NCBI RefSeq assembly: GCF_964019385.1 | Contig: NC_088645.1 | Coordinates: 34,598,820 to 34,662,819, forward strand | Direction: 5' to 3' | Source of the DNA: Sycon ciliatum | Lineage: Eukaryota > Porifera > Calcarea > Leucosolenida > Sycettidae | Length of the DNA: 64,000 bases | Shown: positions 5,041 to 31,949 of the stretch, one piece after another | Layout: every line of letters begins with the position of its first letter | How positions within the stretch are numbered: the stretch's first letter is position 1 | The notes under the pieces: generated by a model | Seen by the model: only the letters and a program-made list of their open reading frames with translations | The model's database searches: none | Told to the model about the DNA's origin: nothing | Translations under genes and position numbers: made by a program

Positions 5041-7485
5041 GAGCCAGGGACTACAGAAACCACCCTATGGCACTTTTTGGCGAAATTTTTTTTTTCCTCT
5101 CAAAATGTTGGTATGGTATGGTAATGTGCTCAAACAAAATTTCAAGTTGATCTGCGATGGTAAAATGTGCCTAACCACCTATTTAATAATGGCATGTCAA
5201 TTGAGCGATATAGAGCAAATTTATGTACACAGTTTGTAATGTTCGTTGTATATCTCCCGGCATTCTTGCTAGTTAGGCAGCCAAGGGAGCTGACTTCCCT
5301 CCGAGAAGTACTGAGCCACATTCTTCTCCAGGTACTGGCGGCGTGCATCTGATATCCCTGGTGCTGGTAATACTGCTGGGCGAACTGCATCCTTGGCTTT
5401 CTCCCTGAAGGTTTCATCTTTCAACAGGGTGAATGACTCCTCTTCACCGTGGCATTCCTTCCTCATGTGCACCACACCAGGGCTGTCAGAAGCGAACCTG
5501 AAGTGCTGATAGTGCCCGATCCCTTTCAGAGGCTTGAAGATGGTGCTCAGGTAAGTATCCCATTCTCTCCATGACCAGCTGTATGCAAGCGGGGTGTTTG
5601 CGGCACATGAGGATGAAGTGCAATCCATGACATCTTGCATAGTGTCCATCTCTAACGCACGGAACTTCTTCTTCAGGAGCCCAAAGTAGCCGTCCACTGC
5701 ACAGCGAGTATGGCCCACTCGCATGAACGAGAGCTCGATGGTATCTGACATGCCACACATAATGCGCCATGCCATGTAGGCCAGTACAGTTTTATTCTTG
5801 TTCTGGCCTACACAGTTGTCCGCGTGAAAGTGAATGTTCCGTTTCCCATCGGTGTGGCATGTTAGGAACTCATCGAGCATCGATACAACTGCATTCGGGC
5901 CGTGCGCCTTCTTTCCATCCTCACCGATCGTTTGGCCCTCGTGGAACAGGAAGTTCATTTGCCGCTGGCGGGCCTCTTCTGCAATGCCGAATAATTGAAC
6001 CCTGAAGCGGACCTTGAAATACAGAGGACCGACCTGGCGAGTATGAAATGGCAGTTCAAGTTGCTGGGCAAAATCAAATGTATAGTGAACTATGCCCTCA
6101 GCTTCATCCAGTGACGCCTGCGCGCCGTCCACTAAGTCTCGGTAGTACTGCCGCTCCTCTTGTGCAAGTGATATGTGCGAACGCAGGGCCTGAACACTAC
6201 ATTCCGTCTCTTCCTCTGTACGAGCGACACGAATTTTGTCCCGCAGCTTGTCACACAGTGCGCATACGTCTGTCCTTGGCTTCATCACTTTGATGTGTGC
6301 TGTCTGTCTCCTCCAAATGCGGCAAAATGACCTGTAATGAATAGGCGAATACTGTGTGACGGTCTTGGTATAGATGTTGTATGCAGACTTCTTGTTCTTG
6401 GATGCTGGTAAGTATACTGGAGGGTCTTCAGCACGACCTCGTTCCGCTGCAGGCTGAGGTAGACCGTACATGTTAGCGTATGAATAAATAAACTGCACTA
6501 CATCCTGCTCCATGTCTGCTGAAATGGCTAAGTGCTCTGGTATTCTCCCAGTCAAGCCATGGTGTGCCAGTTGAACGACTCCTTTGCTTGCCTTTTTTTG
6601 AAGGCGCTTCATTACATGACTTCCAACAGCATGAACTGCCATGAACACGTCTTTGCACAACTCGTAACCACGTACATGATAGCGGAAATAGAAAGGTCGA
6701 TCACCACCACCAGTCGTCGACTTTCGCATGCTTCCAGTCAGTGCGCCCAGAACAAACTGCTTGAAGCGCTTTTTCGATTCTCGGAGTTTAGAGACTTCAA
6801 ACATGTAGTCCTCGAGCTGCTGCTCTGGGATGACTTTCCAATGATTCTTCGACTTGCATCCACAACCTCTCTCAATCCCATCGCGTATGTCTGAAGACAG
6901 GAGACCACGCTTCACCTGCTCCGTCGTCGGTGGCTCAGGTGCGGGGTCATCTGGCTCGTCATCCGATTCCGAGTAGTCGGTGTCACTCTCCGCGTTTGAA
7001 ATTTCCGAGCTGTCGGGGCTTGGCGTTTTCGACACAACACTAGCAGCACTCGAGCTTGCTGCGACTCCATACGTCTTCTTCTTAGGTGGCATATCATCGC
7101 CGTCGCTGTCAGCATCGGTGTCGGAATCGCTCGCGGACGACTCGTGGGTGCCAGCGCTGAATCCGTAAAAATTCTCGTCGTCCGATTCAAGCGCCTGCGC
7201 TATTGCGTCAGGGACTCCACACAGCATCGAGCTGCGTCGTCTACTAGATGTTGTAGCCATAATCAATCACAGCAAGTGGAGCCTCTTGAGTTACTCGACA
7301 ATCGCTGGGAATCCTATTGTCTTCACCAAACACCTAATCAACATAACAAGAGGACAGCTCTTGAGTCTTGTCGAAACAAAAGTGACGAGTTCTGCGCTTC
7401 GCGTAACTTTGAGTCGCGTGACTTTGAAACGTCATAACTTGATTTTGATATCAAACGTCGTAGGGCGGTTTCTATAGTCCCTGGC
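5041..7485 (-). mobile_element. Complete DNA transposon carrying a DUF7869-like gene
   Basis: The two ends are inverted copies of about 27 bp: GAGCCAGGGACTA, then (C/T)AGAAACC(A/G)CCCTA, with two mismatches. The left end reads inward from 5041 and the right end from 7485. Both are flanked by ATAT (5037-5040 and 7486-7489), a likely target duplication; because ATAT is palindromic, a shorter TA duplication with slightly longer ends is equally possible. The only gene inside is the intact minus-strand ORF at 5269-7260, with about 225 bp of non-coding DNA on each side. Defined ends, a target duplication and an intact ORF together make this a probable autonomous element about 2.45 kb long. Confidence 0.75.
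5269..7260 (-). CDS. DUF7869-like protein, probable transposase (663 aa)
   Basis: I place the start at the ATG at 7260-7258 (MATTSS); the two codons before it begin with TTG. Residues 1-110 are Ser/Asp/Glu-rich and probably disordered. A Cys-rich GCGCKSKNHW stretch follows, then a basic segment and a CALCDKLRDK motif near the middle that may bind zinc. The C-terminal half carries HYTFDFAQQLELP, HFHADNCVGQNKN and MRVGHTRCAVDGYFG, the signature I know from DUF7869-type proteins of invertebrates and plants. The Asp in TFDF, the Asp in HADNC and a later Asp or Glu could form a DDE/D-type RNase H-fold active site; that is inference. The ORF is uninterrupted and sits centrally between inverted repeats, which supports a transposase role. 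A domesticated host gene is less likely because of the flanking ends. Confidence 0.8.
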   Translation of the reverse strand: MATTSSRRRSSMLCGVPDAIAQALESDDENFYGFSAGTHESSASDSDTDADSDGDDMPPKKKTYGVAASSSAASVVSKTPSPDSSEISNAESDTDYSESDDEPDDPAPEPPTTEQVKRGLLSSDIRDGIERGCGCKSKNHWKVIPEQQLEDYMFEVSKLRESKKRFKQFVLGALTGSMRKSTTGGGDRPFYFRYHVRGYELCKDVFMAVHAVGSHVMKRLQKKASKGVVQLAHHGLTGRIPEHLAISADMEQDVVQFIYSYANMYGLPQPAAERGRAEDPPVYLPASKNKKSAYNIYTKTVTQYSPIHYRSFCRIWRRQTAHIKVMKPRTDVCALCDKLRDKIRVARTEEETECSVQALRSHISLAQEERQYYRDLVDGAQASLDEAEGIVHYTFDFAQQLELPFHTRQVGPLYFKVRFRVQLFGIAEEARQRQMNFLFHEGQTIGEDGKKAHGPNAVVSMLDEFLTCHTDGKRNIHFHADNCVGQNKNKTVLAYMAWRIMCGMSDTIELSFMRVGHTRCAVDGYFGLLKKKFRALEMDTMQDVMDCTSSSCAANTPLAYSWSWREWDTYLSTIFKPLKGIGHYQHFRFASDSPGVVHMRKECHGEEESFTLLKDETFREKAKDAVRPAVLPAPGISDARRQYLEKNVAQYFSEGSQLPWLPN

Positions 7486-7842
7486 TCATATAATGATCAC
7501 TCAATCTCTATACAGAGAGCGAGTGTGCGGGTAAGTACCTAGCTGCATGTACCACAACTTAACATTGGTCTGTTGTGAATTGTAAAATGGTTCCCACTTC
7601 GGTGCTTAAGCCTAGTTCACATTCGAGGCAACGGTGACGGTACGGGACGTAAGGGCTTGTCGGAACGGCTGCGGCGAGCTGTAAAAGCCTGTACGATTCG
7701 AATGACATTGCAATGCTCAACGTCGAACGGCGCGAGTCATAAGGCATGGTCCGTGACAGATTCACGGACCATGTCAGTCACGTAGTCACAGACTTCTTTT
7801 AAATTATTTCTCCTTGCTTGAAGCGCAATCAAGTTCACAATA
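7486..7842. other. Non-coding stretch between two DNA transposons
   Basis: I see no gene. The stretch holds the left end of a possible outer element at 7611 (CCTAGTTCACATTCGA) and the TA at 7841-7842 that flanks the satellite-bearing element. A 15-bp candidate micro-exon around 7516-7530 (after ATACAG, before GTAAGT) is not strong enough to call. Confidence 0.5.
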
Positions 7843-7860
7843 CAGTAAAAGGTGTAACTA

Positions 7861-10800
7861 CCGAACACCGTGACTAGCGACCAGCCTGGTACTACAGACC
7901 ACCGTGACTAGCGACCAGCCTGGTACTACAGACCACCGTGACTAGCGACCAGCCTGGTACTACAGACCACCGTGACTAGCGACCAGCCTGGTACTACAGA
8001 CCACCGTGACTAGCGACCAGCCTGGTCCTACAGACCACCGTGACTAGCGACCAGCCTGGTACTACCGACCACCGTGACTAGCGACCAGCCTGGTACTACA
8101 GACCACCGTGACTAGCGACCAGCCTGGTACTACAGACCACGGTGACTAGCGACCGGCCTGGTACTACAGACCACCGTGACTAGCGACCAGCCTGGTACTA
8201 AAGACCATCGTGACTAGCGACCAGCCTGGTACTACAGACCACAGTGACTAGCGACCAGCCTGGTACTACAGACCACCGTGACTAGCGACCACCCTGGTAC
8301 TACAGACCACCGTGACTAGCGACCAGCCTGGTACTACAGACCACCGTGACTAGCGACCAGCCTGGTACTACCGACCACCGTGACTAGCGACCGGCCTGGT
8401 ACTACAGACCACCGTGACTAGCGACCGGCCGGGTACTACAGACCACCGTGACTAGCGACCGGCCTCGTACTACAGACCACCGTGACTAGCGACCAGCCTG
8501 GTACTACAGACCACCGTGACTAGCGACCAGCCTGGTACTACAGACCACCGTGACTAGCGACCAGCCTGGTCCTACAGACCACCGTGACTAGCGACCAGCC
8601 TGGTACTACCGACCACCGTGACTAGCGACCAGCCTGGTACTACAGACCACCGTGACTAGCGACCAGCCTGGTACTACAGACCACGGTGACTAGCGACCGG
8701 CCTGGTACTACAGACCACCGTGACTAGCGACCGGCCTGGTACTACAGACCACCGTGACTAGCGACCAGCCTGGTACTACAGACCACCGTGACTAGCGACC
8801 AGCCTGGTACTACCGACCACCGTGACTAGCGACCAGCCTGGTACTACAGACCACCGTGACTAGCGGCCAGCCTGGTACTACAGACCTCGGTGACTAGCGA
8901 CCGGCCTGGTACTACAGACCACCGTGACTAGCGACCGGCCTGGTACTACAGACTACCGTGACTAGCGACCAGCCTGGTACTACCGACCACCGTGACTAGC
9001 GACCGGCCTGGTACTACAGACCACAGTGACTAGCGACCGGCCTGGTACTACAGACCACCGTGACTAGCGACCAGCCTGGTACTACAGACCACCGTGACTA
9101 GCGACCAGCCTGGTACTACAGACCACCGTGACTAGCGACCAGCCTGGTACTACAGACCACCGTGAATAGCGACCAGCCTGGTACTACAGACCACCGTGAC
9201 TAGCGACCAGCCTGGTACTACCGACCACCGTGACTAGCGACCAGCCTGGTACTACAGACCACCGTGACTAGCGACCAGCCTGGTACTACAGACCACCGTG
9301 ACTAGCGACCGGCCTGGTACTACAGACCACCGTGACTAGCGACCGGCCTGGTACTACAGACCACCGTGACTAGCGACCAGCATGGTACTACAGACCACCG
9401 TGACTAGCGACCGGCCTGGTACTACCGACCACCGTGACTAGCGACAGACCACCGTGACTAGTGACCAGCCTGGTACTACCGACCACCGTGACTAGCGACC
9501 AGCCTGGTACTACAGACCACCGTGACTAGCGACCAGCCTGGTACTACAGACCACCGTGACTAGCGACCAGCCTGGTACTACAGACCACCGTGACTAGCGA
9601 CCAGCCTGGTACTACCGACCACCGTGACCAGCGACCAGCCTGGTACTACAGACCACCGTGACTAGCGACCGGCCTGGTACTACAGACCACCGTGACTAGC
9701 GACCAGCCTGGTACTACAGACCACCGTGACTAGCGACCGGCCTGGTACTACAGACCACCGTGACTAGCGACCAGCCTGGTACTACCGACCACCGTGACTA
9801 GCGACCAGCCTGGTACTACAGACCACCGTGACTAGCGACCAGCCTGGTACTACAGACCACCGTGACTAGCGACCAGCCTGGTACTACAGACCACCGTGAC
9901 TAGCGACCAGCCTGGTACTACAGACCACCGTGACTAGCGACCGGCCTGGTACTACCGACCACCGTGACTAGCGGCCAGCCTGGTACTACCGACCACCGTG
10001 ACTAGCGACCAGCCTGGTACTACAGACCACCGTGACTAGCGACCGGCCTGGTACTACAGACCACCGTGACTAGCGACCAGCCTGGTACTACAGACCACCG
10101 TGACTAGCGACCGGCCTGGTACTACCGACCACCGTGACTAGCGGCCAGCCTGGTACTACCGACCACCGTGACTAGCGACCAGCCTGGTACTACAGACCAC
10201 CGTGACTAGCAACAAGCCTGGTACTACAGACCACCGTGACTAGCGACCAGCCTGGTACTACCGACCACCGTGACTAGCGACCAGCCTGGTACTACAGACC
10301 ACCGTGACTAGCGACCAGCCTGGTACTACAGACCACCGTGACTAGCGACCAGCCTGGTACTACAGACCACCGTGACTAGCGACCGGCCTGGTACTACCGA
10401 CCACCGTGACTAGCGACCAGCCTGGTACTACCGACCACCGTGACTAGCGACCAGCCTGGTACTACAGACCACCGTGACTAGCGACCGGCCTGGTACTACA
10501 GACCACCGTGACTAGCGACCAGCCTGGTACTACAGACCACCGTGACTAGCGACCAGCCTGGTACTACCGACCACCGTGACTAGCGACCAGCCTGGTACTA
10601 CAGACCACCGTGACTAGCGGCCAGCCTGGTACTACAGACCTCGGTGACTAGCGACCAGCCTGGTACTACCGACCACCGTGACTAGCGACCAGCCTGGTAC
10701 TACAGACCACCGTGACTAGCGACCGGCCTGGTACTACAGACCACCGTGACTAGCGACCACCCTGGTACTACAGACCACCGTGACTAGCGACCAGCCTGGT

Positions 10801-13800
10801 ACTACAGACCACCGTGACTAGCGATCAGCCTGGTACTACAGACCACCGTGACTAGCGACCAGCCTGGTACTACAGACCACCGTGATTAGCGACCAGCCTG
10901 GTATTACAGACCACCGTGACTAGCGACCAGCCTGGTACTACCGACCACCGTGACTAGCGACCAGCCTGGTACTACAGACCACCGTGACTAGCGACCGGCC
11001 TGGTACTACAGACCACCGTGACTAGCGACCAGCCTGGTACTACCGACCACGGTGACTAGCGACCAGCCTGGTACTACAGACCACCGTGACTAGCGACCAG
11101 CCTGGTACTACAGACCACCGTGACTAGCGACCGGCCTGGTACTACAGACCACCGTGACTAGCGACCGGCCTGGTACTACAGACTACCGTGACTAGCGACT
11201 GGCCTGGTACTACCGACCACCGTGACTAGCGACCGGCCTGGTACTACAGACCACCGTGACTAGCGACCAGCCTGGTACTACAGACCACCGTGACTAGCGA
11301 CCAGCCTGGTACTACCGACCACCGTGACTAGCGACAGACCACCGTGACTAGCGACCAGCCTGGTACTACAGACCTCGGTGACTAGCGACCAGCCTGGTAC
11401 TACCGACCACCGTGACTAGCGACCAGCCTGGTACTACAGACCACCGTGACTAGCGACCGGCCTGGTACTACAGACCACCGTGACTAGCGACCACCCTGGT
11501 ACTACAGACCACCGTGACTAGCGACCAGCCTGGTACTACCGACCACCGTGACTAGCGACCAGCCTGGTACTACAGACCACCGTGACTAGCGGCCAGCCTG
11601 GTACTACAGACCTCGGTGACTAGCGACCAGCCTGGTTCTACCGACCACCGTGACCAGCGACCAGCCTGGTACTACAGACCACCGTGACTAGCGACCGGCC
11701 TGGTACTACAGACCACCGTGACTAGCGACCACCCTGGTACTACAGACCACCGTGACTAGCGGCCAGCCTGGTACTACAGACCTCGGTGACTAGCGACCAG
11801 CCTGGTACTACCGACCACCGTGACTAGCGACCAGCCTGGTACTACAGACCACCGTGACTAGCGACCGGCCTGGTACTACCGACCACCGTGACTAGCGACA
11901 GACCACCGTGACTAGTGACCAGCCTGGTACTACCGACCACCGTGACTACCGACCAGCCTGGTACTACAGACCACCGTGACTAGCGACCAGCCTGGTACTA
12001 CAGACCACCGTGACTAGCGACCAGCCTGGTACTACAGACCACCGTGACTAGCGACCAGCCTGGTACTACAGACCACCGTGACTAGCGACCGGCCTGGTAC
12101 TACAGACCACCGTGACTAGCGACCAGCCTGGTACTACCGACCACGGTGACTAGCGACCAGCCTGGTACTACAGACCACCGTGACTAGCGACCAGCCTGGT
12201 ACTACAGACCACCGTGACTAGCGACCGGCCTGGTACTACAGACCACCGTGACTAGCGACCGGCCTGGTACTACAGACTACCGTGACTAGCGACTGGCCTG
12301 GTACTACCGACCACCGTGACTAGCGACCGGCCTGGTACTACAGACCACCGTGACTAGCGACCAGCCTGGTACTACAGACGACCGTGACTAGAGACCAGCC
12401 TGGTACTACCGACCACCGTGACTAGCGACCAGCCTGGTACTACAGAACACCGTGACTAGCGACCAGCCTGGTACTACAGACCACGGTGACTAGCGACCGG
12501 CCTGGTACTACAGACCACCGTGACTAGCGACCGGCCTGGTACTACAGACCACCGTGACTAGCGACCAGCCTGGTACTACAGACCACCGTGACTAGCGACC
12601 GGCCTGGTACTACCGACCACCGTGACTAGCGACAGACCACCGTGACTAGTGACCAGCCTGGTACTACCGACCACCGTGACTAGCGACCAGCCTGGTACTA
12701 CAGACCACCGTGACTAGCGACCAGCCTGGTACTACCGACCACCGTGACTAGCGACCAGCCTGGTACTACCGACCACCGTGACTAGCGACCAGCCTGGTAC
12801 TACAGACCACCGTGACTAGCGACCAGCCTGGTACTACAGACCACGGTGACTAGCGACCGGCCTGGTACTACAGACCACCGTGGCTAGCGACCGGCCTGGT
12901 ACTACAGACCACCGTGACTAGCGACCAGCCTGGTACTACAGACCACCGTGACTAGCGACCGGCCTGGTACTACCGACCACCGTGACTAGCGACAGACCAC
13001 CGTGACTAGTGACCAGCCTGGTACTACCGACCACCGTGCCTAGCGACCAGCCTGGTACTACAGACCACCGTGACTAGCGACCAGCCTGATACTACAGACC
13101 ACCGTGACTAGCGACCAGCCTGGTACTACAGACCACCGTGACTAGCGACCAGCCTGGTACTACCGACCACCGTGACTAGCGACCAGCCTGGTACTACAGA
13201 CCACCGTGACTAGCGACCGGCCTGGTACTACAGACCACCGTGACTAGCGACCAGCCTGGTACTACAGACCACCGTGACTAGCGACCGGCCTGGTACTACA
13301 GACCACCAATGACTAGCGACCAGCCTGGTACTACCGACCACCGTGACTAGCGACCGGCCTGGTACTACAGACCACCGTGACTAGCGACCGGCCTGGTACT
13401 ACAGACCACCGTGACTAGCGACCGGCCTGGTACTACCGACCACCGTGACTAGCGACCGGCCTGGTACTACAGACCACCGTGACTAGCGACCAGCCTGGTA
13501 CTACAGACCACCGTGACTAGCGACCAGCCTGGTACTACAGACCACCGTGACTAGCGACCGGCCTCGTACTACAGACCACCGTGACTATCGACCGGCCTGG
13601 TACTACAGACCACCGTGACTAGCGACCGGCCTGGTCCTACAGACCACCGTGACTAGCGACCAGCCTGGTACTACAGACCACCGTGACTAGCGACCGGCCT
13701 GGTACTACAGACCACCGTGACTAGCGACCGGCCTGGTACTACCGACCACCGTGACTAGCGACCAGCCTGGTACTACAGACCACCGTGACTAGCGACCGGC

Positions 13801-14832
13801 CTGGTACTACAGACCACCGTGACTAGCGACCGGCCTGGTACTACAGACCACCGTGACTAGCGACCAGCCTGGTACTGCTGACCACCGTGACTAGCGACCG
13901 GCCTGGTACTACAGACCACCGTGACTAGCGACCGGCCTGGTACTACCGACCACCGTGACTAGCGACCAGCCTGGTACTACAGACCACCGTGACTAGCGAC
14001 CGGCCTGGTACTACAGACCACCGTGACTAGCGACCGGCCTGGTACTACAGACCACCGTGACTAGCGACCAGCCTGGTACTGCTGACCACCGTGACTAGCG
14101 ACCGGCCTGGTACTACAGACCACCGTGACTAGCGACCGGCCTGGTACTACCGACCACCGTGACTAGCGACCGGCCTGGTACTACAGACCACCATGACTAG
14201 CGACCGGCCTGGTACTACAGACCACCGTGACTAGCGACCGGCCTGGTACTACAGACCACCGTGACTAGCGACCAGCCTGGTACTACAGACCACCGTGACT
14301 AGCGACCGGCCTGGTACTACAGACCACCGTGACTAGCGACCGGCCTGGTACTACCGACCACCGTGACTAGCGACCGGCCTGGTACTACCGACCACCGTGA
14401 CTAGCGACCAGCCTGGTACTACAGACCACCGTGACTAGCGACCAGCCTGGTACTACTGACCACCGTGACTAGCGACCGGCCTGGTACTACAGACCACCGT
14501 GACTAGCGACCGGCCTGGTACTACCGACCACCGTGACTAGCGACCGGCCTGGTACTACAGACCACCGTGACTAGCGACCAGCCTGGTACTACAGACCACC
14601 GTGACTAGCGACCAGCCTGGTACTACAGACCACCGTGACTAGCGACCGACTTGGTACTACAGACCACCTTGACTAGCGACCAGCCTGGTACTACAGACCA
14701 CCGTGACTAGCGACCAGCCTGGTACTACAGACCACCGTGACTAGCGACCGGCCTGGTCACGGTGGTCTGTAGTACCAGGCTGGTACTACAGACCACCGTG
14801 ACTAGCGGCCAGCCTGGTACTACAGACCTCGG
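7861..14832. repeat. 34-bp satellite array 1 (about 205 monomers)
   Basis: The monomer is 34 bp: half-unit GACCACCGTGACTAGC followed by half-unit GACCAGCCTGGTACTACA, and the two halves look related (GACCA start). Common variants are A/G in the second half (CCAGCC or CCGGCC) and ACAG/ACCG at the joint. Rarer marked variants are GACCTCGGTG, CCACCCTGG, GTGATTAGC and TGCTGACC. Truncated 20-bp monomers recur near 9441, 11329, 11895, 12628 and 12988. Higher-order copies are visible: a 360-bp unit at about 12480-13200 and a 204-bp (six-monomer) unit at about 13670-14090. Confidence 0.95.
14756..14802. repeat. Perfect fold-back of satellite monomers
   Basis: Two 22-bp arms (GTCACGGTGGTCTGTAGTAC... 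and its complement) are separated by GGC. One monomer has flipped orientation near the right edge of array 1, giving a perfect hairpin in an otherwise head-to-tail array. Confidence 0.85.
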
Positions 14833-14833
14833 C

Positions 14834-16545
14834 CTAGCGACTACCTGCTGAACACGACCAGCGACCGCCTTTTCTTGTCCCAATGTCGAATTTGGACCCG
14901 TAACTAGCGACCGTGATGTAGCAAATCAAACATTGCTCGAAGCTCCTTCTCGAAATTTTGATGATTTTCCATTGTCGTTTCGATACTACAGCTGGACAAA
15001 TGAACGCAGTCTCATTTTTACTGTGGAATCAGTGTGGACTGCACTACACCTGTCATAATTTCAAGTGCTGTCAAGAACAAACATGATAGGAAACGTCTTG
15101 GAGAACGCATCCAAAGCGCTCTGTGATCGAATTTACTACTCGAAGGAGAAACTACGACTGAGCGGCTCCCAGTCGAAGTGCAATCACACAGCTCACCAGG
15201 TCACACTGACAGTCTGTACTGGCTAGCTAGCATGCTACGGTACATGTGCTCACCTGTACGGAACACAGGCCAGGATACGATGGCGGATACTGTCTGTAGT
15301 AGTCTACAGTGAAGGTGGGAAAACTCGCAACATCGCCGCATCACGTACTGGTACACACCAGTGCAGTTTACGCTACACTACATCCAAGTCGGAGCGACTG
15401 AGTTTCCACTGTAGATCTACACACCGATACCTGTTGCCAGTGTAGTCGCACACAGATGAGGATGGAGTCGATAGTGACTAGTCCACTGCCTGGCCAGGCC
15501 AGCGCTGCTCTGGAAACCCAGTGAGTCGACATGTCGTATCGCTTCCGGTGTATAAAAAACTTGATTTTCTCTCTCTCCAAGTGTTGTATGATCTGAAAGA
15601 AGAATGTCAGTGCGCAAGTGGTGCGGGACTGTATTATCTGCATTTTGACATACATATCATATAATGGGATCCACATATGGTCGCGCCGTGCAAACCTCTA
15701 ACTAAAGACCACCTGCCACTAAAGACCACTTTTCCGGGCACCAAGGGGTGGTCGTTAGTTACAGGTTTTACTGTACCAGTTTTTCATGGAAAAAAAGTAG
15801 CCCTGAAAGTGGTGGCATTCAAATATTAGCCCCGGGGAATGATAGAACAGTTTCTCTGTCACGCTCCTGAGCTGTCCCTAAGTCCAATGAAGTGGCCTAA
15901 GATCATATCTTCAAAAAAATTCAACTCAAGTCGTGCCAGCCATTCTGTGAGTTATCGTGACAAGCGTAATGTTCAAAATGCTAAAATTGTCCTCACGTAC
16001 GAATCGGGAGTTGTCGGCGCATTGTCGGCGCACGGCGACGTCTCCTGTTCACACTCGATTTGCAACCGTTGTGTACTCTTGGGTCTCTGTCTTCACCCAT
16101 CTGCTGTATTAAACGTTGAATCAATTCACCTCTTGCCCTGGCTTCCCCCATCTGTACGGTAGTAAGGTTGTGTTCCCGTTCCTGGTATTCACGTTCAATG
16201 CCGTTAGACCGTCCAGTCGCTTCCCGGTCATCCTCACGTCACGTCCCGTCTCGCCCAGTCGAATGTGAACTAGGAGTTAGCGCCAGGCGGTGAACACTAA
16301 TGCCACTGGCAATGTTTGAGTGCACACTCATGTATGTGACTGTCTATGTGCACTTAAGATGTCTATAATACATGTGCTAGTGTGTTGGTATCTGTGTGCG
16401 TGTTCTGTGCTGTGTTCTATTTAGAAGTCTCACCAACAAGTCCTGATACTGACGGTACGTTCCACTTCTGTTTCTCTTTGCCTTGCACTTTCAGTGAGTG
16501 CATCAAGCACTGCAATGGGTTCTGAAAACACTGTAGGACCACTGT
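14834..16545. repeat. Copy 1 of a 1.7-kb segment in a 5.6-kb tandem duplication
   Basis: This stretch matches 20435-22146 at a constant offset of 5601 bp with only a handful of substitutions that I could see. It contains the satellite-free body and right end of the TA element (to 15773), then 770 bp of flanking DNA including a candidate 30-bp exon. At 16545/16546 the flank breaks directly into satellite, which marks the duplication junction. ORFs inside (for example 15368-15676 minus and 15839-16162 plus) have no recognisable domain and I do not call them. Confidence 0.85.
16425..16454 (+). CDS. Candidate 30-bp stalk exon, copy 1
   Basis: A 30-bp interval is bounded by a good acceptor (GTGTTCTATTTAG) and donor (GACG then GTACGT). 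Both boundaries are phase 1 if read to fit the sushi exon (4650-4835) and the TM exon (22679-22910). It would encode a short Ser/Thr/Pro stretch, VSPTSPDTD, typical of an extracellular stalk. The fit is good but rests on splice signals alone. Confidence 0.35.
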
Positions 16546-19500
16546 GTTGCTAGCGACCGGCCTGGTACTACAGACCACCGTGACTAGCGACCAGCCTGGT
16601 ACTACAGACCACCGTGACTAGCGACCGGCCTGGTACTACAGACCACCGTGACTAGCGACCAGCCTGGTACTACCGACCACCGTGACTAGCGACCAGCCTG
16701 GTACTACAGACCACCGTGACTAGCGACCAGCCTGGTACTACAGACCACCGTGACTAGCGACCAGCCTGGTACTACAGACCACCGTGACTAGCGACCAGCC
16801 TGGTACTACCGACCACCGTGACTAGCGACCAGCCTCGTACTACAGACCACCGTGACTAGCGACCAGCCTGGTACTACAGACCACCGTGACTAGCGACCAG
16901 CCTGGTACTACCGACCACCGTGACTAGCGACCAGCCTGGTACTACAGACCACCGTGACTAGCGGCCAGCCTGGTACTACAGACCTCGGTGACTAGCGACC
17001 AGCCTGGTACTACCGACCACCGTGACTAGCGACCAGCCTGGTACTACAGACCACCGTGACTAGCGACCGGCCTGGTACTACAGACCACCGTGACTAGCGA
17101 CCACCCTGGTACTACAGACCACCGTGACTAGCGACCAGCCTGGTACTACAGACCACCGTGACTAGCGACCAGCCTGGTACTACAGACCACCGTGACTAGC
17201 GACCAGCCTGGTACTACAGACCACCGTGATTAGCGACCAGCCTGGTATTACAGACCACCGTGACTAGCGACTAGCCTGGTACTACCGACCACCGTGACTA
17301 GCGACCAGCCTGGTACTACAGACCACCGTGACTAGCGACCGGCCTGGTACTACAGACCACCGTGACTAGCGACCAGCCTGGTACTACCGACCACGGTGAC
17401 TAGCGACCAGCCTGGTACTACAGACCACCGTGACTAGCGACCAGCCTGGTACTACAGACCACCGTGACTAGCGACCGGCCTGGTACTACAGACCACCGTG
17501 ACTAGCGACCGGCCTGGTACTACAGACCACCGTGACTAGCGACTGGCCTGGTACTACCGACCACCGTGACTAGCGACCGGCCTGGTACTACAGACCACCG
17601 TGACTAGCGACCAGCCTGGTACTACAGACCACCGTGACTAGCGACCAGCCTGGTACTACAGACCACCGTGACTAGCGACCGGCCTCGTACTACAGACCAC
17701 CGTGACTAGCGACCGGCCTGGTACTACAGACCACCGTGACTAGCGACCTGGCTGGTACTACAGACCACCGTGACTAGCGACCGGCCTGGTACTACCGACC
17801 ACCGTGACTAGCGACAGACCACCGTGACTAGCGACCAGCCTGGTACTACAGACCTCGGTGACTAGCGACCAGCCTGGTACTACCGACCACCGTGACTAGC
17901 GACCAGCCTGGTACTACAGACCACCGTGACTAGCGACCGGCCTGGTACTACAGACCACCGTGACTAGCGACCACCCTGGTACTACAGACCACCGTGACTA
18001 GCGACCAGCCTGGTACTACCGACCACCGTGACTAGCGACCAGCCTGGTACTACAGACCACCGTGACTAGCGGCCAGCCTGGTACTACAGACCTCGGTGAC
18101 TAGCGACCAGCCTGGTTCTACCGACCACCGTGACCAGCGACCAGCCTGGTACTACAGACCACCGTGACTAGCGACCGGCCTGGTACTACAGACCACCGTG
18201 ACTAGCGACCACCCTGGTACTACAGACCACCGTGACTAGCGGCCAGCCTGGTACTACAGACCTCGGTGACTAGCGACCAGCCTGGTACTACCGACCACCG
18301 TGACTAGCGACCAGCCTGGTACTACCGACCACCGTGACTAGCGACCAGCCTGGTACTACAGACCACCGTGACTAGCGACCAGCCTGGTACTACAGACCAC
18401 GGTGACTAGCGACCGGCCTGGTACTACAGACCACCGTGACTAGCGACCGGCCTGGTACTACAGACCACCGTGACTAGCGACCAGCCTGGTACTACAGACC
18501 ACCGTGACTAGCGACCGGCCTGGTACTACCGACTACCGTGACTAGCGACAGACCACCGTGACTAGTGACCAGCCTGGTACTACCGACCACCGTGACTAGC
18601 GACCAGCCTGGTACTACAGACCACCGTGACTAGCGACCAGCCTGGTACTACAGACCACCGTGACTAGCGACCAGCCTGGTACTACAGACCACCGTGACTA
18701 GCGACCAGCCTGGTACTACCGACCACCGTGACTAGCGACCAGCCTGGTACTACAGACCACCGTGACTAGCGACCGGCCTGGTACTACAGACCACCGTGAC
18801 TAGCGACCAGCCTGGTACTACAGACCACCGTGACTAGCGACCGGCCTGGTACTACAGACCACCGTGACTAGCGACCAGCCTGGTACTACCGACCACCGTG
18901 ACTAGCGACCAGCCTGGTACTACAGACCACCGTGACTAGCGACCAGCCTGGTACTACAGACCACCGTGACTAGCGACCAGCCTGGTACTACAGACCACCG
19001 TGACTAGCGACCAGCCTGGTACTACCGACCACCGTGACTAGCGACCAGCCTAGTACTACAGACCACCGTGACTAGCGACCGGCCTGGTACTACAGACCAC
19101 CGTGACTAGCGACCAGCCTGGTACTACAGACCACCGTGACTAGCGACCGGCCTGGTACTACCGACCACCGTGACTAGCGACCAGCCTGGTACTACCGACC
19201 ACCGTGACTAGCGACCAGCCTGGTACTACAGATCACCGTGACTAGCAACAAGCCTGGTACTACAGACCACCGTGACTAGCGACCAGCCTGGTACTACCGA
19301 CCACCGTGACTAGCGACCAGCCTGGTACTACAGACCAACGTGACTAGCGACCAGCCTGGTACTACAGACCACCGTGACTAGCGACCAGCCTGGTACTACA
19401 GACCACCGTGATTAGCGACCAGCCTGGTATTACAGACCACCGTGACTAGCGACCAGCCTGGTACTACCGACCACCGTGACTAGCGACCAGCCTGGTACTA

Positions 19501-20392
19501 CAGACCACCGTGACTAGCGACCGGCCTGGTACTACAGACCACCGTGACTAGCGACCAGCCTGGTACTACCGACCACGGTGACTAGCGACCAGCCTGGTAC
19601 TACAGACCACCGTGACTAGCGACCAGCCTGGTACTACAGACCACCGTGACTAGCGACCGGCCTGGTACTACAGACCACCGTGACTAGCGACCGGCCTGGT
19701 ACTACAGACCACCGTGACTAGCGACCGGCCTGGTACTACCGACCACCGTGACTAGCGACCGGCCTGGTACTACAGACCACCGTGACTAGCGACCAGCCTG
19801 GTACTACAGACCACCGTGACTAGCGACCAGCCTGGTACTACAGACCACCGTGACTAGCGACCGGCCTCGTACTACAGACCACCGTGACTATCGACCGGCC
19901 TGGTACTACCGACCACCGTGACTAGCGACCGGCCTGGTACTACCGACCACCGTGACTAGCGACCAGCCTGGTACTACAGACCGCCGTGACTAGCGACCAG
20001 CCTGGTACTACTGACCACCGTGACTAGCGACCGGCCTGGTACTACAGACCACCGTGACTAGCGACCGGCCTGGTACTACCGACCACCGTGACTAGCGACC
20101 GGCCTGGTACTACAGACCACCGTGACTAGCGACCAGCCTGGTACTACAGACCACCGTGACTAGCGACCAGCCTGGTACTACAGACCACCGTGACTAGCGA
20201 CCGGCTTGGTACTACAGACCACCTTGACTAGCGACCAGCCTGGTACTACAGACCACCGTGACTAGCGACCGGCCTGGTACTACAGACCACCGTGACTAGC
20301 GACCGGCCTGTTACTACAGACCACCGTGACTAGCGACTGGCCTGGTACTACAGACCACCGTGACTAGCGACCGGCCTGGTACTACAGACCAC
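16546..20392. repeat. 34-bp satellite array 2 (about 113 monomers)
   Basis: Same monomer and orientation as array 1. The block 17800-18330 matches 11320-11850 almost base for base (offset 6480), including the truncated 20-bp monomer and the GACCTCGGTG, CCACCCTGG and GACCAGCG variants. The arrays therefore share a recent common origin and later changed length by unequal exchange or slippage. Confidence 0.95.
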
Positions 20393-21374
20393 TTCGTCAG
20401 GCACGGAAGGTCTCACATTCAAAATGCACTGTGACTAGCGACTACCTGCTGAACGCGACCAGCGACCGCCTTTTCTTGTCCCAATGTCGAATTTGGACCC
20501 GTAACTAGCGACCGTGATGTAGCAAATCAAACATTGCTCGAAGCTCCTTCTCGAAATTTTGATGATTTTCCATTGTCGTTTCGATACTACAGCTGGACAA
20601 ATGAACGCAGTCTCATTTTTACTACGGAATCAGTGTGGACTGCACTACACCTGTCATAATTTCAAGTGCTGTCAAGAACAAACATGATAGGAAACGTCTT
20701 GGAGAACGCATCCAAAGCGCTCTGTGATCGAATTTACTACTCGAAGGAGAAACTACGACTGAGCGGCTCCCAGTCGAAGTGCAATCACACAGCTCACCAG
20801 GTCACACTGACAGTCTGTACTGGCTAGCTAGCATGCTACGGTACATGTGCTCACCTGTACGGAACACAGGCCAGGATACGATGGCGGATACTGTCTGTAG
20901 TAGTCTACAGTGAAGGTGGGAAAACTCGCAACATCGCCGCATCACGTACTGGTACACACCAGTGCAGTTTACGCTACACTACATCCAAGTCGGAGCGACT
21001 GAGTTTCCACTGTAGATCTACACACCGATACCTGTTGCCAGTGTAGTCGCACACAGATGAGGATGGAGTCGATAGTGACTAGTCCACTGCCTGGCCAGGC
21101 CAGCGCTGCTCTGGAAACCCAGTGAGTCGACATGTCGTATCGCTTCCGGTGTATAAAAAACTTGATTTTCTCTCTCTCCAAGTGTTGTATGATCTGAAAG
21201 AAGAATGTCAGTGCGCAAGTGGTGCGGGACTGTATTATCTGCATTTTGACATACATATCATATAATGGGATCCACATATGGTCGCGCCGTGCAAACCTCT
21301 AACTAAAGACCACCTGCCACTAAAGACCACTTTTCCGGGCACCAAGGGGTGGTCGTTAGTTACAGGTTTTACTG
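16546..21374. mobile_element. TA-flanked transposon, copy 2, left end missing
   Basis: It begins abruptly with satellite at the duplication junction and so lacks its own CAGT left end. It keeps ACTTCGTCAGGCACGG and TCTCACATTCAAAATG after the array (20392-20430), a stretch also present in the compact copy at 29.1 kb but lost from copy 1. It ends in the inverted terminus at 21374, followed by TA. Confidence 0.75.
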
Positions 21375-22146
21375 TACCAGTTTTTCATGGAAAAAAAGTA
21401 GCCCTGAAAGTGGTGGCATTCAAATATTAGCCCCGGGGAATGATAGAACAGTTTCTCTGTCACGCTCCTGAGCTGTCCCTAAGTCCAATGAAGTGGCCTA
21501 AGATCATATCTTCAAAAAAATTCAACTCAAGTCGTGCCAGCCATTCTGTGAGTTATCGTGACAAGCGTAATGTTCAAAATGCTAAAATTGTCCTCACGTA
21601 CGAATCGGGAGTTGTCGGCGCATTGTCGGCGCACGACGACGTCTCCTGTTCACACTCGATTTGCAACCGTTGTGTACTCTTGGGTCTCTGTCTTCACCCA
21701 TCTGCTGTATTAAACGTTGAATCAATTCACCTCTTGCCCTGGCTTCCCCCATCTGTACGGTAGTAAGGTTGTGTTCCCGTTCCTGGTATTCACGTTCAAT
21801 GCCGTTAGACCGTCCAGTCGCTTCCCGGTCATCCTCACGTCACGTCCCGTCTCGCCCAGTCGAATGTGAACTAGGAGTTAGCGCCAGGCGGTGAACACTA
21901 ATGCCACTGGCAATGTTTGAGTGCACACTCATGTATGTGACTGTCTATGTGCACTTAAGATGTCTATAATACATGTGCTAGTGTGTTGGTATCTGTGTGC
22001 GTGTTCTGTGCTGTGTTCTATTTAGAAGTCTCACCAACAAGTCCTGATACTGACGGTACGTTCCACTTCTGTTTCTCTTTGCCTTGCACTTTCAGTGAGT
22101 GCATCAAGCACTTCAATGGGTTCTGAAAACACTGTATGACCACTGC
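20435..22146. repeat. Copy 2 of the 1.7-kb duplicated segment
   Basis: Matches 14834-16545 at offset 5601. Differences seen include A/G near 14854/20455, TG/AC near 15020/20622, G/A near 16036/21637, and three near the right end. After 22146 the flank continues into unique DNA, so this copy keeps the original right junction. Confidence 0.85.
22026..22055 (+). CDS. Candidate 30-bp stalk exon, copy 2
   Basis: Identical to the candidate exon at 16425-16454, with the same acceptor and donor, copied by the 5.6-kb duplication. Because it is a multiple of three with phase 1-1, inclusion of one or both copies would not break the frame. Confidence 0.35.
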
Positions 22147-22243
22147 GTTGCATCTACCGGTGCAGAAATGAACATTAGATCAGTGACAACACCTTTCTGC
22201 AGAATGTACTAGAAAGACTTGTGGCAGGATTTGTTCTAGTCGG

Positions 22244-22395: not shown

Positions 22396-22582
22396 CAGTC
22401 AACTTTGCGTATAACCACACTCGGCCGGGCATCAGAAAAGTGTCCTTATTCGCGAAGTGTCGTTATACCCTAAGTCTCATTACATGTCTACAGGTGGAAT
22501 GAACTTTGTTCTGGGCAAGGAAATTCTGTCGTTGTTCGCGAATTGTCGTTATATCCGCAGTCGTTATTAGCCAAGTTGACTG
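22396..22582. mobile_element. 187-bp TA-flanked MITE
   Basis: The ends are CAGTCAACTTTGCGTATAAC and, inverted, CAGTCAACTTGGCTAATAAC, flanked by TA at 22394-22395 and 22583-22584. Inside there are further GTCGTTAT repeats. No ORF; non-autonomous. Confidence 0.8.
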
Positions 22583-22678
22583 TAACTTGATGCTCGACCT
22601 CTGCTACTGAATTCCTCGTTTTTGTTTGCCATTTTGTTGCCCTAAAAACATGCGGTTCCTACACAACTACATCAACAG

Positions 22679-28534: not shown

Positions 28535-28710
28535 CAGTAAAACGTGGTGTAAGCGACCTCTGGTTTTAGCGACCACCTGCTGTTGACGACCGTTTCTCCA
28601 TGCACCCACAGTTCTACACATACACTGTGGGATCTGGTTCTAAACACCACCTGGCTTTAACGACTCCTTTTGCTCGCACCTTGGGGTGGTCGCTTAACCA
28701 GGTTTCACTG
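28535..28710. mobile_element. 176-bp TA-flanked MITE
   Basis: The ends CAGTAAAACGTGGTGTAAGC and, inverted, CAGTGAAACCTGGTTAAGCG are flanked by TA (28533-28534 and 28711-28712). The internal GCGACC and CGACC motifs resemble the larger TA element at 29088, so the two belong to related families. Confidence 0.8.
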
Positions 28711-29085: not shown

Positions 29086-29087
29086 TA

Positions 29088-30826
29088 CAGTAAAACCTGT
29101 AACTAACGACCACCGTGACTAGCGACCGGCCTGGTACTACCGACCACTTTGTCAGGCACGGACGGTCTCACATTCAAAATGCACTGTGACTAGCGACTAC
29201 CTGCTGAACGCGACCAGCGACCGCCTTTTCTTGTCCCAATGTCGAATTTTGACCCGTAACTAGCGACCGCGATGTAGCAAATCAAACATTGCTTGAAGCT
29301 CCTTCTCGAAATTTTGATGATTTTCCATGGTCGTTTCGATACTACAGCTGGACAAATGAGCGCAGTCTCATTTTTACTGTGGAATCAGTGTGGATTGCAC
29401 TACACCTGTCATAATTTCAAGTGCTGTCAAGAACAAACAAGATAGGAAACGTCTTGGAGAGCGCATCCAAAGCGCTCTTTGATCGATGTTACTACTCGAA
29501 GGAGAAACTAAGACTGAGCGGCTCTCTGTCGAAGTGCAATCACACAGCTCAGTCACCAGACTCACCACTACACCAGGTCACACTGACAGTCTGTGCTGGC
29601 TAGCTAGCGTACTACGGTATTATGTACTCAGCTGTACGGAACACAGGCCAGGATACGATGGCGGATAATAGTCTACAGTGAAAGGTGCGAAAACTCCCAA
29701 CATCGCCGCATCACGTACTGGTAGAGGAGACGGCTCGATACCGGGACGTTTTGACAGCCAAATTTGTATAGACCCAAACCGATCACCAGCGTTGATTTTT
29801 CACTCGAAATATGTTTGTGGAAGGAAACTGGTATGTTGAAGTTTGCTCTGGGGCCAGAGTCAATCGAACTGAGCCACTCCTTTGTGTTGACCCATTGCCT
29901 CCAAGTTGCCCAATTTTTCGCTTCAAAAAAGTTCAAATCAGAGGTGGCTCCAAACCGGACACGTTTTAGAGTGCACGTCAAATTCACTCTGGGTCTGAAA
30001 TTAGGTAACTGCTATCGCTCCACGACGGCCAGTACAGAGTAACAATAAGCCTTGTGTGTGCTTCCATTAGTTTTGATTGGTATGCGGTGCTTTATTGGCG
30101 AGAGGCGAGCCGCTGTTTACCTGCGACAAGGAGTTGATTTTTCGAAAGTCGTAAAACTCAAGTCGCAGTGCGAAGCAACACGTCAAAAACTCACCTGCTT
30201 GATATGGCGCTTCTGGTCATCGCAGAGCCATGACATTTTGGCTCGGAGTATAACACATCGTAGTCTCACTGTGACATATGTTTTCTAATCAAAATACCAA
30301 GAGAGAAAGTGAATATTGAGTCCGTTCCGGTTTGCAACCGGTGTCCTATTTGAAACCGTCCCCTCTACACACTACTCACTAGTACAGTTTACGCTACACT
30401 ACATCCAAGTCGGAGCGACTGAGTTTCCACTGCAGATCAACACACTGATACCAGTTGCCAGTGTAGTCGCACACAGATGAGGATGGAGTCGATAGTGACT
30501 AGTGCACTGCCTGGCCAGGCCAGCGCTGCTCTGGAAACCCAGTCACCAGTGAGTCGACATACATGTATGTGTCAAAAGGTCGTATCGCTTTCGGTGTATA
30601 AAAAACTTGATTTTGTCTCTCTCCAAGTGTTGTATGATCTGAAAGAAGAATGTCAGTGCGCAAGTGGTGGGCCATGGGGGATTGTATTATCTGCATTTTG
30701 ACATACATATCATATAATGGGATCCATATATGGTCGCGCGGTGCAAACCTCTAACTAAAGACCACCTGCCACTAACGACCACTTTTCCGGGCACCAAGGG
30801 GTGGTCGTTAGTTACAGGTTTCACTG
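29088..30826. mobile_element. Compact TA-flanked transposon, presumed ancestor of the satellite
   Basis: The ends CAGTAAAACCTGTAACTAAC and, inverted, CAGTGAAACCTGTAACTAAC match over about 27 bp with one mismatch and are flanked by TA (29086-29087 and 30827-30828). Directly inside the left end is a single 34-bp unit (GACCACCGTGACTAGC plus GACCGGCCTGGTACTACC), then ACTTTGTCAGGCACGG and a body that matches 14834-15773. It lies inside a LINE, whose frame confirms the boundaries. A 645-bp insert at about 29722-30366 is absent from the satellite copies. Confidence 0.85.
29722..30366. mobile_element. Insert nested in the compact TA element
   Basis: Both satellite copies pass directly from ACGTACTGGTA to CAGTTTACGCTACAC at this point. 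Here about 650 bp intervene, starting GAGGAGACGG and ending with the inverted GGGGACGGTTTC. The ends look like short inverted repeats. No recognisable ORF; frames such as 29673-29987 (minus) are uninformative. Confidence 0.5.
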
Positions 30827-30828
30827 TA

Positions 30829-31905
30829 ATTCCAAACAAGAGCCGATTTACTTGAAAAGGACAGAAAGCCAGACATAGATCTATAGCGATTGATACTCAT
30901 GTTATGAGTTGTAGAGCCGCGAGTAGTTCGGGTAGACGTACAGATGGGAAAGAGGGACTGCAAGCAAACAGCCGGCTTAATACAGTAACAGTGGAAAATG
31001 AATACAAGGAACAAAAATACTGATCGATATTGGAAAGAGGAAACATTGAGGTGGTGAAGAAGTGGCGTGATATTAGCTTGGGGTGATGCGCCACAAGCAA
31101 CTCGTACAGCGCGCCGGTGGAGTGAGGCTAGCTTGTTTCTATTTTTAGCGGATATAAACGAAAGGTATACAGGGAGAGCATATTCTAGATCAGGCTGAAT
31201 AACACCGACAACGAAAGTACGGCGGGCAAACAGGTTCATCTGGCGGAAAGATCGCCGCAGTACACCGATCTTCCGTGAGGCTTTCCGGACGACTTTGTTA
31301 ATGTGTTGGTCAAAGGACAGCTTATTGTCAACAACGACTCCTAAGCATCTGGTGCTTTCCACTTCCCCTAGCGTAACATTTGACAAGGTGATTTGCAGTT
31401 GTTGCCTTTGTTGTTGTTGCTGACTCCCTGTGGCACGTTTGGGATGGATTTGCATGACAGCGGTTTTGTCGGTATTTATCTGCATACCAATGGAGTCAAG
31501 GTGGTTGTTTAGTATCTCCAGTGCCGATGACAACTTGGCTTCGGAACGCGCCTTCGACGGATCACTAGAGTAGACTGTCTTGTCATCTGCGAACATCAGT
31601 AATTTTGAACCCGCTGTCTCAGCAAGCCGGGGAAGGTCCCTCAGGTAGACATTAAAGAGGGTAGGGCCTAAAATACTTCCCTGAGGAACTCCTCGAGACA
31701 CTGCAAGACTTGAAGACTGGCTGGCTTGCGTGACGACACGCTGAGATCTCCCGGCGAGGTACGACGCAAACCAACGCAGGGCGCTTGCATGAACACCCAT
31801 GCCATGGAGCGCAATGAGTAACTGTTGATGCTGGACGCGATCAAACGCCTTGCTGAGGTCGATAAAGGCTACACTGGTAGTCTCTCCGCGGTCCTGTGTA
31901 CTTAT
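30829..31905 (-). pseudogene. LINE reverse transcriptase, N-terminal segment of split gene
   Basis: Motifs in order are AFIDLSKAFDRV (31860 region, upstream of the first ATG), SRGVPQGSILGPTLFNVYL, LLMFADDKTVY (catalytic FADD), the LGVVVDNKLSFDQHI thumb region and the HRRAVRVACG C-terminal region. The FADD box, GVPQGS and overall order identify a non-LTR retrotransposon RT of the jockey/CR1/RTE type, probably inactive because the 5' part and endonuclease are missing. The apparent C-terminal residues after LVWN come from the inserted TA element. Confidence 0.85.
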
Positions 31906-31949
31906 GCAATGCCCTGTGATCAGTTATACCCATTTCTACACGGCTGGGA

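What the first reader, a model, noticed from the sequence alone, without database searches (positions are those of the whole stretch)
7843..20392. Satellite arrays grew from the left end of a TA-flanked transposon
The compact element at 29088-30826 has one 34-bp unit just inside its CAGT end. The element at 7843-15773 has the same ends, the same TA flanks and the same body, but about 205 units at that position. The arrays therefore lie inside an element and descend from its subterminal sequence. Ancestor-like and expanded states are both present within 25 kb.
Basis: partly seen in the sequence, partly recalled or inferred. Interest (0 to 1): 0.8.

Follow-up and report, generated by a model that had tools for sequence, protein, structure and literature searches.

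The report
Transposon ends multiplied into satellite arrays
A family of small animal jumping genes has one end that seems to multiply in place, from a single copy to hundreds in a row, so this genome may show how a satellite repeat is born inside a transposon.

Summary
The window (C3 of a 538-Mb eukaryotic assembly) holds a TA-flanked, CAGT-ended element with ~204 units of 34 bp at its left end (7843-15773), a second array (16553-20392) without that end, and a compact one-unit copy (29088-30826). The two array blocks are a segmental duplication. The compact copy carries a nested 642-bp insertion and is ~10% diverged (gaps counted) from the array element: a cousin, not the ancestor. Among copies sampled by body, 32 of 34 left ends read have one unit and two have two. 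Of 32 listed array sites, 29 had a readable outer edge; 25 of these start at the CAGT end. Unit number runs 1, 2, 5, 6, 8, 10, 11, 15, 17, 20, 29, 30, 37 ... ~204, ~280. The same position also yields 16-bp and 52-bp registers. The 52-bp unit is the complete transposon terminus: 2,384 exact terminus-to-terminus junctions genome-wide, none in the control. Best reading: direct repeats in the terminus prime duplication and unequal exchange expands it. Transposon-borne satellites are known (miDNA4, Xstir, Tetris); repeating the whole end, in several registers, looks like a new variant. Direction of change within subfamilies is not settled.

The parts
7843..15773 (+). Array-bearing element 1: CAGT...ACTG ends, TA on both sides (7841-7842, 15774-15775)
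7843..7869 (+). Left terminal inverted repeat; overlaps the first array unit and differs at 4 positions from the right end
7857..14757 (+). Array 1: about 204 units of 34 bp (ACTACMGACCACCGTGACTAGCGACCRGCCTGGT)
14758..14784 (-). Inverted piece of a unit at the damaged right edge of array 1
14834..15773 (+). Body and right end of element 1 (99.7% to 20435-21374)
15774..16552 (+). Right flank, repeated at 21375-22160 (99.1%): the flank shared by the duplicated blocks
16553..20392 (+). Array 2: 113 units of 34 bp; lacks the CAGT end because the duplication broke inside the array
20393..21374 (+). Body and right end following array 2, with the undamaged array/body junction
29088..30826 (+). Compact copy of the element with one unit (29102-29135) and a 12-bp partial unit (29136-29147); TA at 29086-29087 and 30827-30828
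29724..30365 (.). Nested, unrelated young element inside the compact copy (GAGGAGACGG...CCGTCCCCTC ends, TA on both sides); not part of the family
28535..28710 (.). Short relative with the same kind of end (CAGTAAAACGTGG...CCAGGTTTCACTG, TA flanks) and GCGACC-like motifs about 16-17 bp apart, read by eye; with up to 2 mismatches the motif scan found only one hit at its left end and one towards its right end

Best explanation
This is a non-autonomous, TA-targeting, CAGT-ended DNA transposon family. Its left end carries three copies of a ~10-bp motif (ACTANNGACC) at 16- and 18-bp spacing, the outermost lying inside the terminal inverted repeat. These built-in direct repeats, probably transposase-binding sites, let the left end duplicate itself. 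Exchange between the outer and inner motif adds a 34-bp unit, exchange between neighbouring motifs adds a 16-bp unit, and joining the terminus to the TA of the inner motif adds a 52-bp unit that contains the whole end. Once two units exist, unequal exchange lengthens, shortens and homogenises the array. Long arrays are then copied with their chromosomal neighbourhood and can break free of the element, as array 2 did. Shown: the anatomy, the three registers at one position, the range of unit numbers, and the duplication in the window. Inferred: the exchange steps, the role of the motif, and the direction from one unit to many.
For: 34-bp array sites: 25 of 29 with a readable outer edge begin at a CAGT-type end, 22 of them directly preceded by TA (on letters). 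Body-sampled copies: 32 of 34 left ends read have one unit and 2 have two. The compact element without its nested insert has 10 ACTANNGACC motifs (at most 1 mismatch) against 0.9 expected, maximum 5 in 300 simulated sequences; three lie at positions 15, 31 and 49. Array edges often keep compact-type sequence while the interior is homogenised: the inner partial is ACTACCGACC at 10 of 17 readable right edges and the outer unit is of the terminus type (TAAAG or TAACG) at 9 of 12 left edges. Other registers at the same place: 42 spacings of 16 bp in L102 and 5 in L081; 52 bp in L095, L103 and L104. 2,384 exact 52-bp junctions genome-wide, 0 in control. Arrays 1 and 2 share unit order.
Against: The body tree puts the one-unit copies as a young group nested among array-bearing ones, so single units there could be returns; its array rows were found by an array search, so the sample is biased. 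Four of 29 arrays start without a CAGT end (window array 2, L087, L101, C9:13.06M); three further listed places were not readable (C14:6.51M and C7:22.41M run past what I fetched; L079 has masked bases at the edge). At 7 of 17 right edges the inner partial is not ACTACCGACC. The 29 sites were found with a 34-bp array query; apart from C2:42.71M and C1:2865948 (both with an adjoining body), the surroundings of the 52-bp junctions were not examined, so arrays of ends outside elements are not excluded there. Window array 1 and C3:34.55M are copies of one locus, so the 25 sites are not all independent. No transposase was identified. Long reads across the arrays could not be checked.
Confidence: 0.73

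Rival explanations
1. Array first: the family's ancestor already carried a multi-unit end, and one-unit copies such as 29088-30826 are contractions or internal-end excisions that then multiplied in a burst.
For: Tree: one-unit copies are a tight young group, array-bearing copies the more diverged remainder. The 52-bp register contains many complete ends, so one excision from an inner end would restore one unit.
Against: The tree's array rows were chosen by array search. A one-unit copy with an older-type end exists (L110: ACTAAAGACC outer motif and CAGCC unit). A short relative in the window (28535-28710) also shows a single set of spaced motifs, read by eye.
Confidence: 0.3
2. [quoted passage not shown]
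For: A few arrays lack element ends (L087, L101, C9:13.06M).
Against: The unit overlaps the terminal inverted repeat itself, and the 52-bp unit includes the whole terminus; arrays without ends are 4 of 29 readable edges.
Confidence: 0.07
3. The 52-bp arrays arose by self-insertion: a copy jumped into the TA of the inner motif GGTAC-TA-CCGACC of another copy, and homologous exchange between the two nested bodies left two ends in tandem, later expanded.
For: The 52-bp junction reads GGTAC-TA-CAGT: the end joined exactly at TA of the inner motif (the exact pattern presupposes this junction, so variants would not be counted). L074 has two successive complete ends, the outer degenerate.
Against: No nested intermediate (whole element inside the inner motif) was seen or searched for; a 3-bp match (TAC) could equally guide slippage.
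Confidence: 0.35
4. The doubled block in the window is an assembly artefact (two haplotypes laid end to end).
For: Blocks are 99.1-99.7% identical and the arrays differ mainly by unit indels.
Against: A third copy 36-47 kb left of the window's start shares both flanks (98.9% and 99.7%), and the join at 16552 runs straight from flank into an array unit with no gap bases.
Confidence: 0.15

Closest known systems
miDNA4 of Xenopus tropicalis (Tc1/mariner MITE driving a satellite; Scalvenzi and Pollet 2014, not read; seen only as described in passages of reviews PMC12628747 and PMC9659126)
   Different: There the authors suggest capture of a pre-existing repeat inside the element; here the unit overlaps or equals the terminus itself and occurs in three registers
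Tetris / TIR-220 of Drosophila virilis (PMC4079207; abstract and two discussion sections read)
   Same: Tandem repeats inside a terminal inverted repeat, partly similar to the outer terminus, expand into satellite arrays (up to 66 copies), unequal crossing-over proposed; extra transposase-binding sites proposed
   Different: Foldback element with ~220-bp units; here a short-ended TA element with 16/34/52-bp units, the 52-bp unit containing the complete end, and arrays of 200 or more units
Xstir tandem repeats riding on a MITE in Xenopus (Hikosaka and Kawahara 2004, not read; via review passages)
   Same: MITE, array and composite forms coexist
   Different: Described as derived from internal MITE sequence, or from the TIR in a review table; a multi-register terminus is not mentioned in what I saw
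Galileo (Drosophila), only as cited in PMC4079207 section 19
   Same: Tandem repeats inside the ends carrying additional transposase-binding sites
   Different: Foldback-like element; not read directly

Membership tests
Satellite-bearing MITE (miDNA4/Tetris type) | Array lies inside a terminal-inverted-repeat element with target-site duplication | tested here: met
   7843-15773 with TA on both sides; 25 of 29 readable 34-bp array edges start at the CAGT end; not examined for most 52-bp arrays
Satellite-bearing MITE (miDNA4/Tetris type) | Same unit occurs as a single monomer in some copies and as arrays in others | tested here: met
   32 of 34 body-sampled left ends have one unit, 2 have two; arrays of 5 to ~280 elsewhere
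Satellite-bearing MITE (miDNA4/Tetris type) | Non-coding element | tested here: met
   No stop-to-stop frame of 150 aa or more lies within either element; one frame (30808-31923) overlaps only the last 19 bp of the compact copy
Tc1/mariner superfamily | TA target-site duplication | tested here: met
   TA at both ends in 26 of 26 fetched copies in which both ends were found, of 30 examined
Tc1/mariner superfamily | DDE/D transposase of that superfamily mobilises it | tested here: inconclusive
   A 33-aa reading-frame fragment in L064 has no significant Pfam match (one at E 0.065, below cut-off) and no PDB match; a search for an autonomous partner was not run
pogo/Tigger-like | pogo-type transposase, CENP-B-like DNA-binding domain | not tested
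   Resemblance of the CAGT...ACCTG ends to pogo-type elements is recalled, not tested
Classical satellite DNA | Long homogenised tandem array | tested here: met
   Array span up to 10.8 kb end to end (C3:32.76M; middle read only in part); within-array unit identity 0.87-0.99
Classical satellite DNA | Heterochromatic/centromeric location | not testable with these tools
   No cytology or chromatin data

The most novel reading that the evidence does not exclude
A common form of this repeat is a satellite in which every 52-bp unit is a complete transposon end with its own TA. Each unit is then a possible cleavage site: excision from an inner end would shed units and re-found compact elements, while insertion or exchange at the inner TA adds units. 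The array would be a reversible, transposase-readable structure, neither plain satellite nor plain transposon, that trades between the two states and keeps re-seeding itself.
Probability: 0.22. Interest if true: 0.82.

Novelty: new variant of a known kind. Interest (0 to 1): 0.62.

Why it matters
How satellites begin is usually inferred from finished arrays. Here one-unit, two-unit, small and very large arrays of one family coexist in one assembly at one defined position, in three registers, with edges that often keep compact-type sequence. That would let the first steps (1 to 2 units, choice of register, homogenisation, escape by segmental duplication) be counted rather than guessed. If the repeated 52-bp ends still work as ends, it also links satellite turnover directly to transposition.

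Tried and rejected
Pre-existing satellite captured by the element: disfavoured because the unit overlaps or equals the terminus. Direct ancestor-descendant pair inside the window: rejected (nested insert, ~10% divergence; a closer relative with two units at C1:40057903). Same insertion, compact and expanded, at C14:26983118 (L046): both flanks match the window up to the TA on each side, but at 77-79% (82-83% without gaps), while the elements are ~95% alike without gaps, so one old shared insertion is not shown; two insertions into one older repeat, or gene conversion, fit as well. Transposase fragment in L064: no Pfam or PDB support (searches used a wrong frame). The 20-base unit pattern had 0 exact matches in genome contigs and in viral contigs, as expected for an animal repeat. 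Genome-wide counts of 34-bp junctions and of one-unit ends were asked for and never answered, as were the two flank searches.

Full report
Place. The window is C3:34598820-34662819 of G000, a 538-Mb assembly in 313 contigs. One 665-aa frame (5269-7266) matches PF25273-bearing proteins, and two of the 120 listed hits carry scpid/scgid names; I recall those as Sycon (sponge) identifiers, which I did not test.

Observation. Element 1 (7843-15773) has TA on both sides, CAGT/ACTG ends, and an array from 7857 to 14757 of about 204 units of 34 bp. Array 2 (16553-20392, 113 units) is followed by the same body (99.7%) and the same 787-bp right flank (99.1%), and it starts without an element end. The order of unit variants in array 2 copies that in part of array 1: 37 identical units in the best local alignment, score 81 against at most 18 in 50 shuffles. 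So the two blocks are a segmental duplication broken inside the array. A third array-bearing copy lies at C3:34551846-34562409, left of the window, with the same flanks (98.9% over 355 bp and 99.7% over 775 bp); its array spans 9,566 bp, about 280 units if unbroken (middle not read).

The compact copy. 29088-30826 has TA flanks and one unit plus a 12-bp partial. Its extra 642 bp (29724-30365) is a different element: of 42 rows, one is the copy itself, 39 are matches to this insert at 98-100%, and 2 are short end matches. The remaining body is 89-90% identical to the array elements with gaps and ~95% without. It is a cousin, not the parent.

Other copies picked by body. One search scored 40 of 586 candidates and gave 30 loci (L031-L060, one of them the window's compact copy). 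27 of 30 keep the left end: 26 have one unit and one (L033) has two; I read L033 by eye, the script printed 1. In 26 of the 30 both ends were found, all with TA on both sides. L054 and L055 are identical in the parts compared (body and printed left edge) and 9.4 kb apart. One search scored 40 of 1,667 candidates with the array-type body; I read the left end of 7 of its places that I did not already hold: six have one unit (L109-L114), and L108, the nearest body relative of the window's array element outside its own cluster (95%), has two. That is 32 of 34 with one unit. One search also lists array-bearing places: the window's two bodies, the third copy, and C1:2865948, which abuts a 52-bp array of at least 14 ends. 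With the three of these whose left side is known to be an array, 32 of 37 have one unit. Other places were not read.

Arrays elsewhere. One search scored 40 of 625 candidates for the 34-bp array and printed most of 175 matches, which fall at 32 places by my grouping. I fetched edges of all of these (L061-L107). The outer edge could be read at 29, window arrays included. 25 start at a CAGT-type end (one reads CAAT, one CAGC, several have other single changes, one is degenerate), 22 of these directly after TA (exceptions C3:32.76M, L078, L088). Four start without it: window array 2, L087, L101 and C9:13.06M. Three were not readable (C14:6.51M, C7:22.41M, L079, the first and last possibly one array). 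Unit numbers between end and body junction: 5, 5, 5, 6, 6, 6, 8, 8, 10, 11, 15, 17, 20, 29, 30, 37; L081 and L102 mix 16- and 34-bp steps and are left out of that list. Larger ones, from edge positions: C11:18.09M (2,392 bp, ~70), C2:37.14M (4,077 bp, ~120), the window (~204), C3:34.55M (~280) and C3:32.76M (10,776 bp, mixed registers). Bodies include the long type and a short type of a few hundred bases; a short one-unit copy lies 1.1 kb from the C11:18.09M array.

Registers. 34 bp is not the only unit. L102 has 42 spacings of 16 bp and L081 five. L103/L095 at C2:42.71M start with a run of 52-bp units followed by 34-bp units, and L104 mixes both. The 52-bp unit is the whole terminus: TA, CAGTAAAACCTGTA, and the motifs up to GGTAC. 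Genome-wide, the exact end pattern occurs 2,656 times (control 0), the exact 52-bp junction GCCTGNTACTACAGTAAAACCTGTAACTANNGACC 2,384 times (control 0), and the exact array/body junction 438 times (control 0). Only the first 100 places of each are listed; they fall in 11 clusters in the first 3.9 Mb of C1, 9 of them with two or more ends at 52-bp steps or multiples (one run contains two 103-bp steps). That stretch is one end of one contig and may not be typical. The 34-bp junction count did not complete, so which register is commonest is not known.

Why this end. The compact element without its nested insert has 10 ACTANNGACC motifs (at most 1 mismatch) against 0.9 expected and at most 5 in 300 simulated sequences. 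Three sit at positions 15, 31 and 49, so the outer and third motifs are 34 bp apart and the first two 16 bp apart, matching two of the registers. The 52-bp junction joins the terminus at the TA of the third motif. The common array unit ACTACAGACC can be read as a hybrid of an outer ACTAAAGACC and an inner ACTACCGACC, or as one point change. Some small arrays are instead mostly ACTACCGACC (L073, L075, L086, L098), and L077 has a G-type unit, which fits several independent starts. Mean unit identity is 0.959 within sites and 0.943 between sites (21 sites): sites differ, but not strongly.

Direction. For growth: one unit is the usual state in body-sampled copies, two-unit copies exist, and edges often keep compact-type sequence (inner partial ACTACCGACC at 10 of 17 right edges, terminus-type outer unit at 9 of 12 left edges). 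Against: 7 of 17 right edges do not, and in the tree (45 rows, weak support, one long row) the one-unit copies form a young group among array-bearing ones. The array rows were found by array search, so this is not decisive. L046 shares the window element's insertion site, but its flanks are 82-83% identical without gaps while the elements are ~95% alike, so it is not clean evidence of one insertion in two states.

Known relatives. Reviews (passages of PMC12628747 and PMC9659126) describe miDNA4 and Xstir; for Tetris I read the abstract and two discussion sections of PMC4079207. For Tc1/mariner I saw passages of PMC7325037. In the literature searches I ran (listings only, apart from the papers named) I saw no description of a satellite built from complete transposon ends in several registers; most subscription papers are outside that library.

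Change of odds on checking: confidence in the best explanation lowered from 0.75 to 0.73, because most 52-bp arrays were not examined for an adjoining element and the edge evidence is 10 of 17 rather than general.

Noticed in passing
window 29724-30365: Nested element (GAGGAGACGG...CCGTCCCCTC ends, TA flanks); 39 further matches at 98-100% identity among the 40 candidates scored. Its high identity suggests a recent burst.
   Followed up: partly
L114 1-120, L103 ~720-930, window 22396-22583: Another CAGT-ended repeat (ACAGTCAACTT...AAGTTGACTGT), seen by eye. In L114 the compact element sits exactly at the terminal TA of such a repeat (GACTG-TA-CAGT).
   Followed up: no
L046 (C14:26983118, minus) against window 7600-7842 and 15774-16270: One-unit copy at the same TA of a related sequence (flanks 82-83% without gaps, elements ~95%): shared site, conversion or repeated targeting.
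   Followed up: partly
window 32000-64000: Large direct and inverted repeats spaced about 11 kb, with several frames that look like reverse transcriptases (recalled motif, no search run).
   Followed up: no
window 5269-7266, minus: 665-aa open frame related to proteins with Pfam PF25273.
   Followed up: partly
L054 and L055 (C8:4570951 and C8:4561541): Two copies identical in body and printed left edge, 9.4 kb apart: probably a recent local duplication carrying the element.
   Followed up: no
L076 right side (C10:25.88M): The right-end motif ACTAAAGACCACCTGCC is also repeated about 3-4 times at 17 bp (by eye), so the other end can multiply too.
   Followed up: no
L050, L085, L091, L099, L110 left ends (and L102, changed): A shared 3-bp insertion (GACCGGCACCGTG) in the first motif may mark a subfamily; it is seen with one unit, with small arrays, and in changed form at the 16-bp array.
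   Followed up: no
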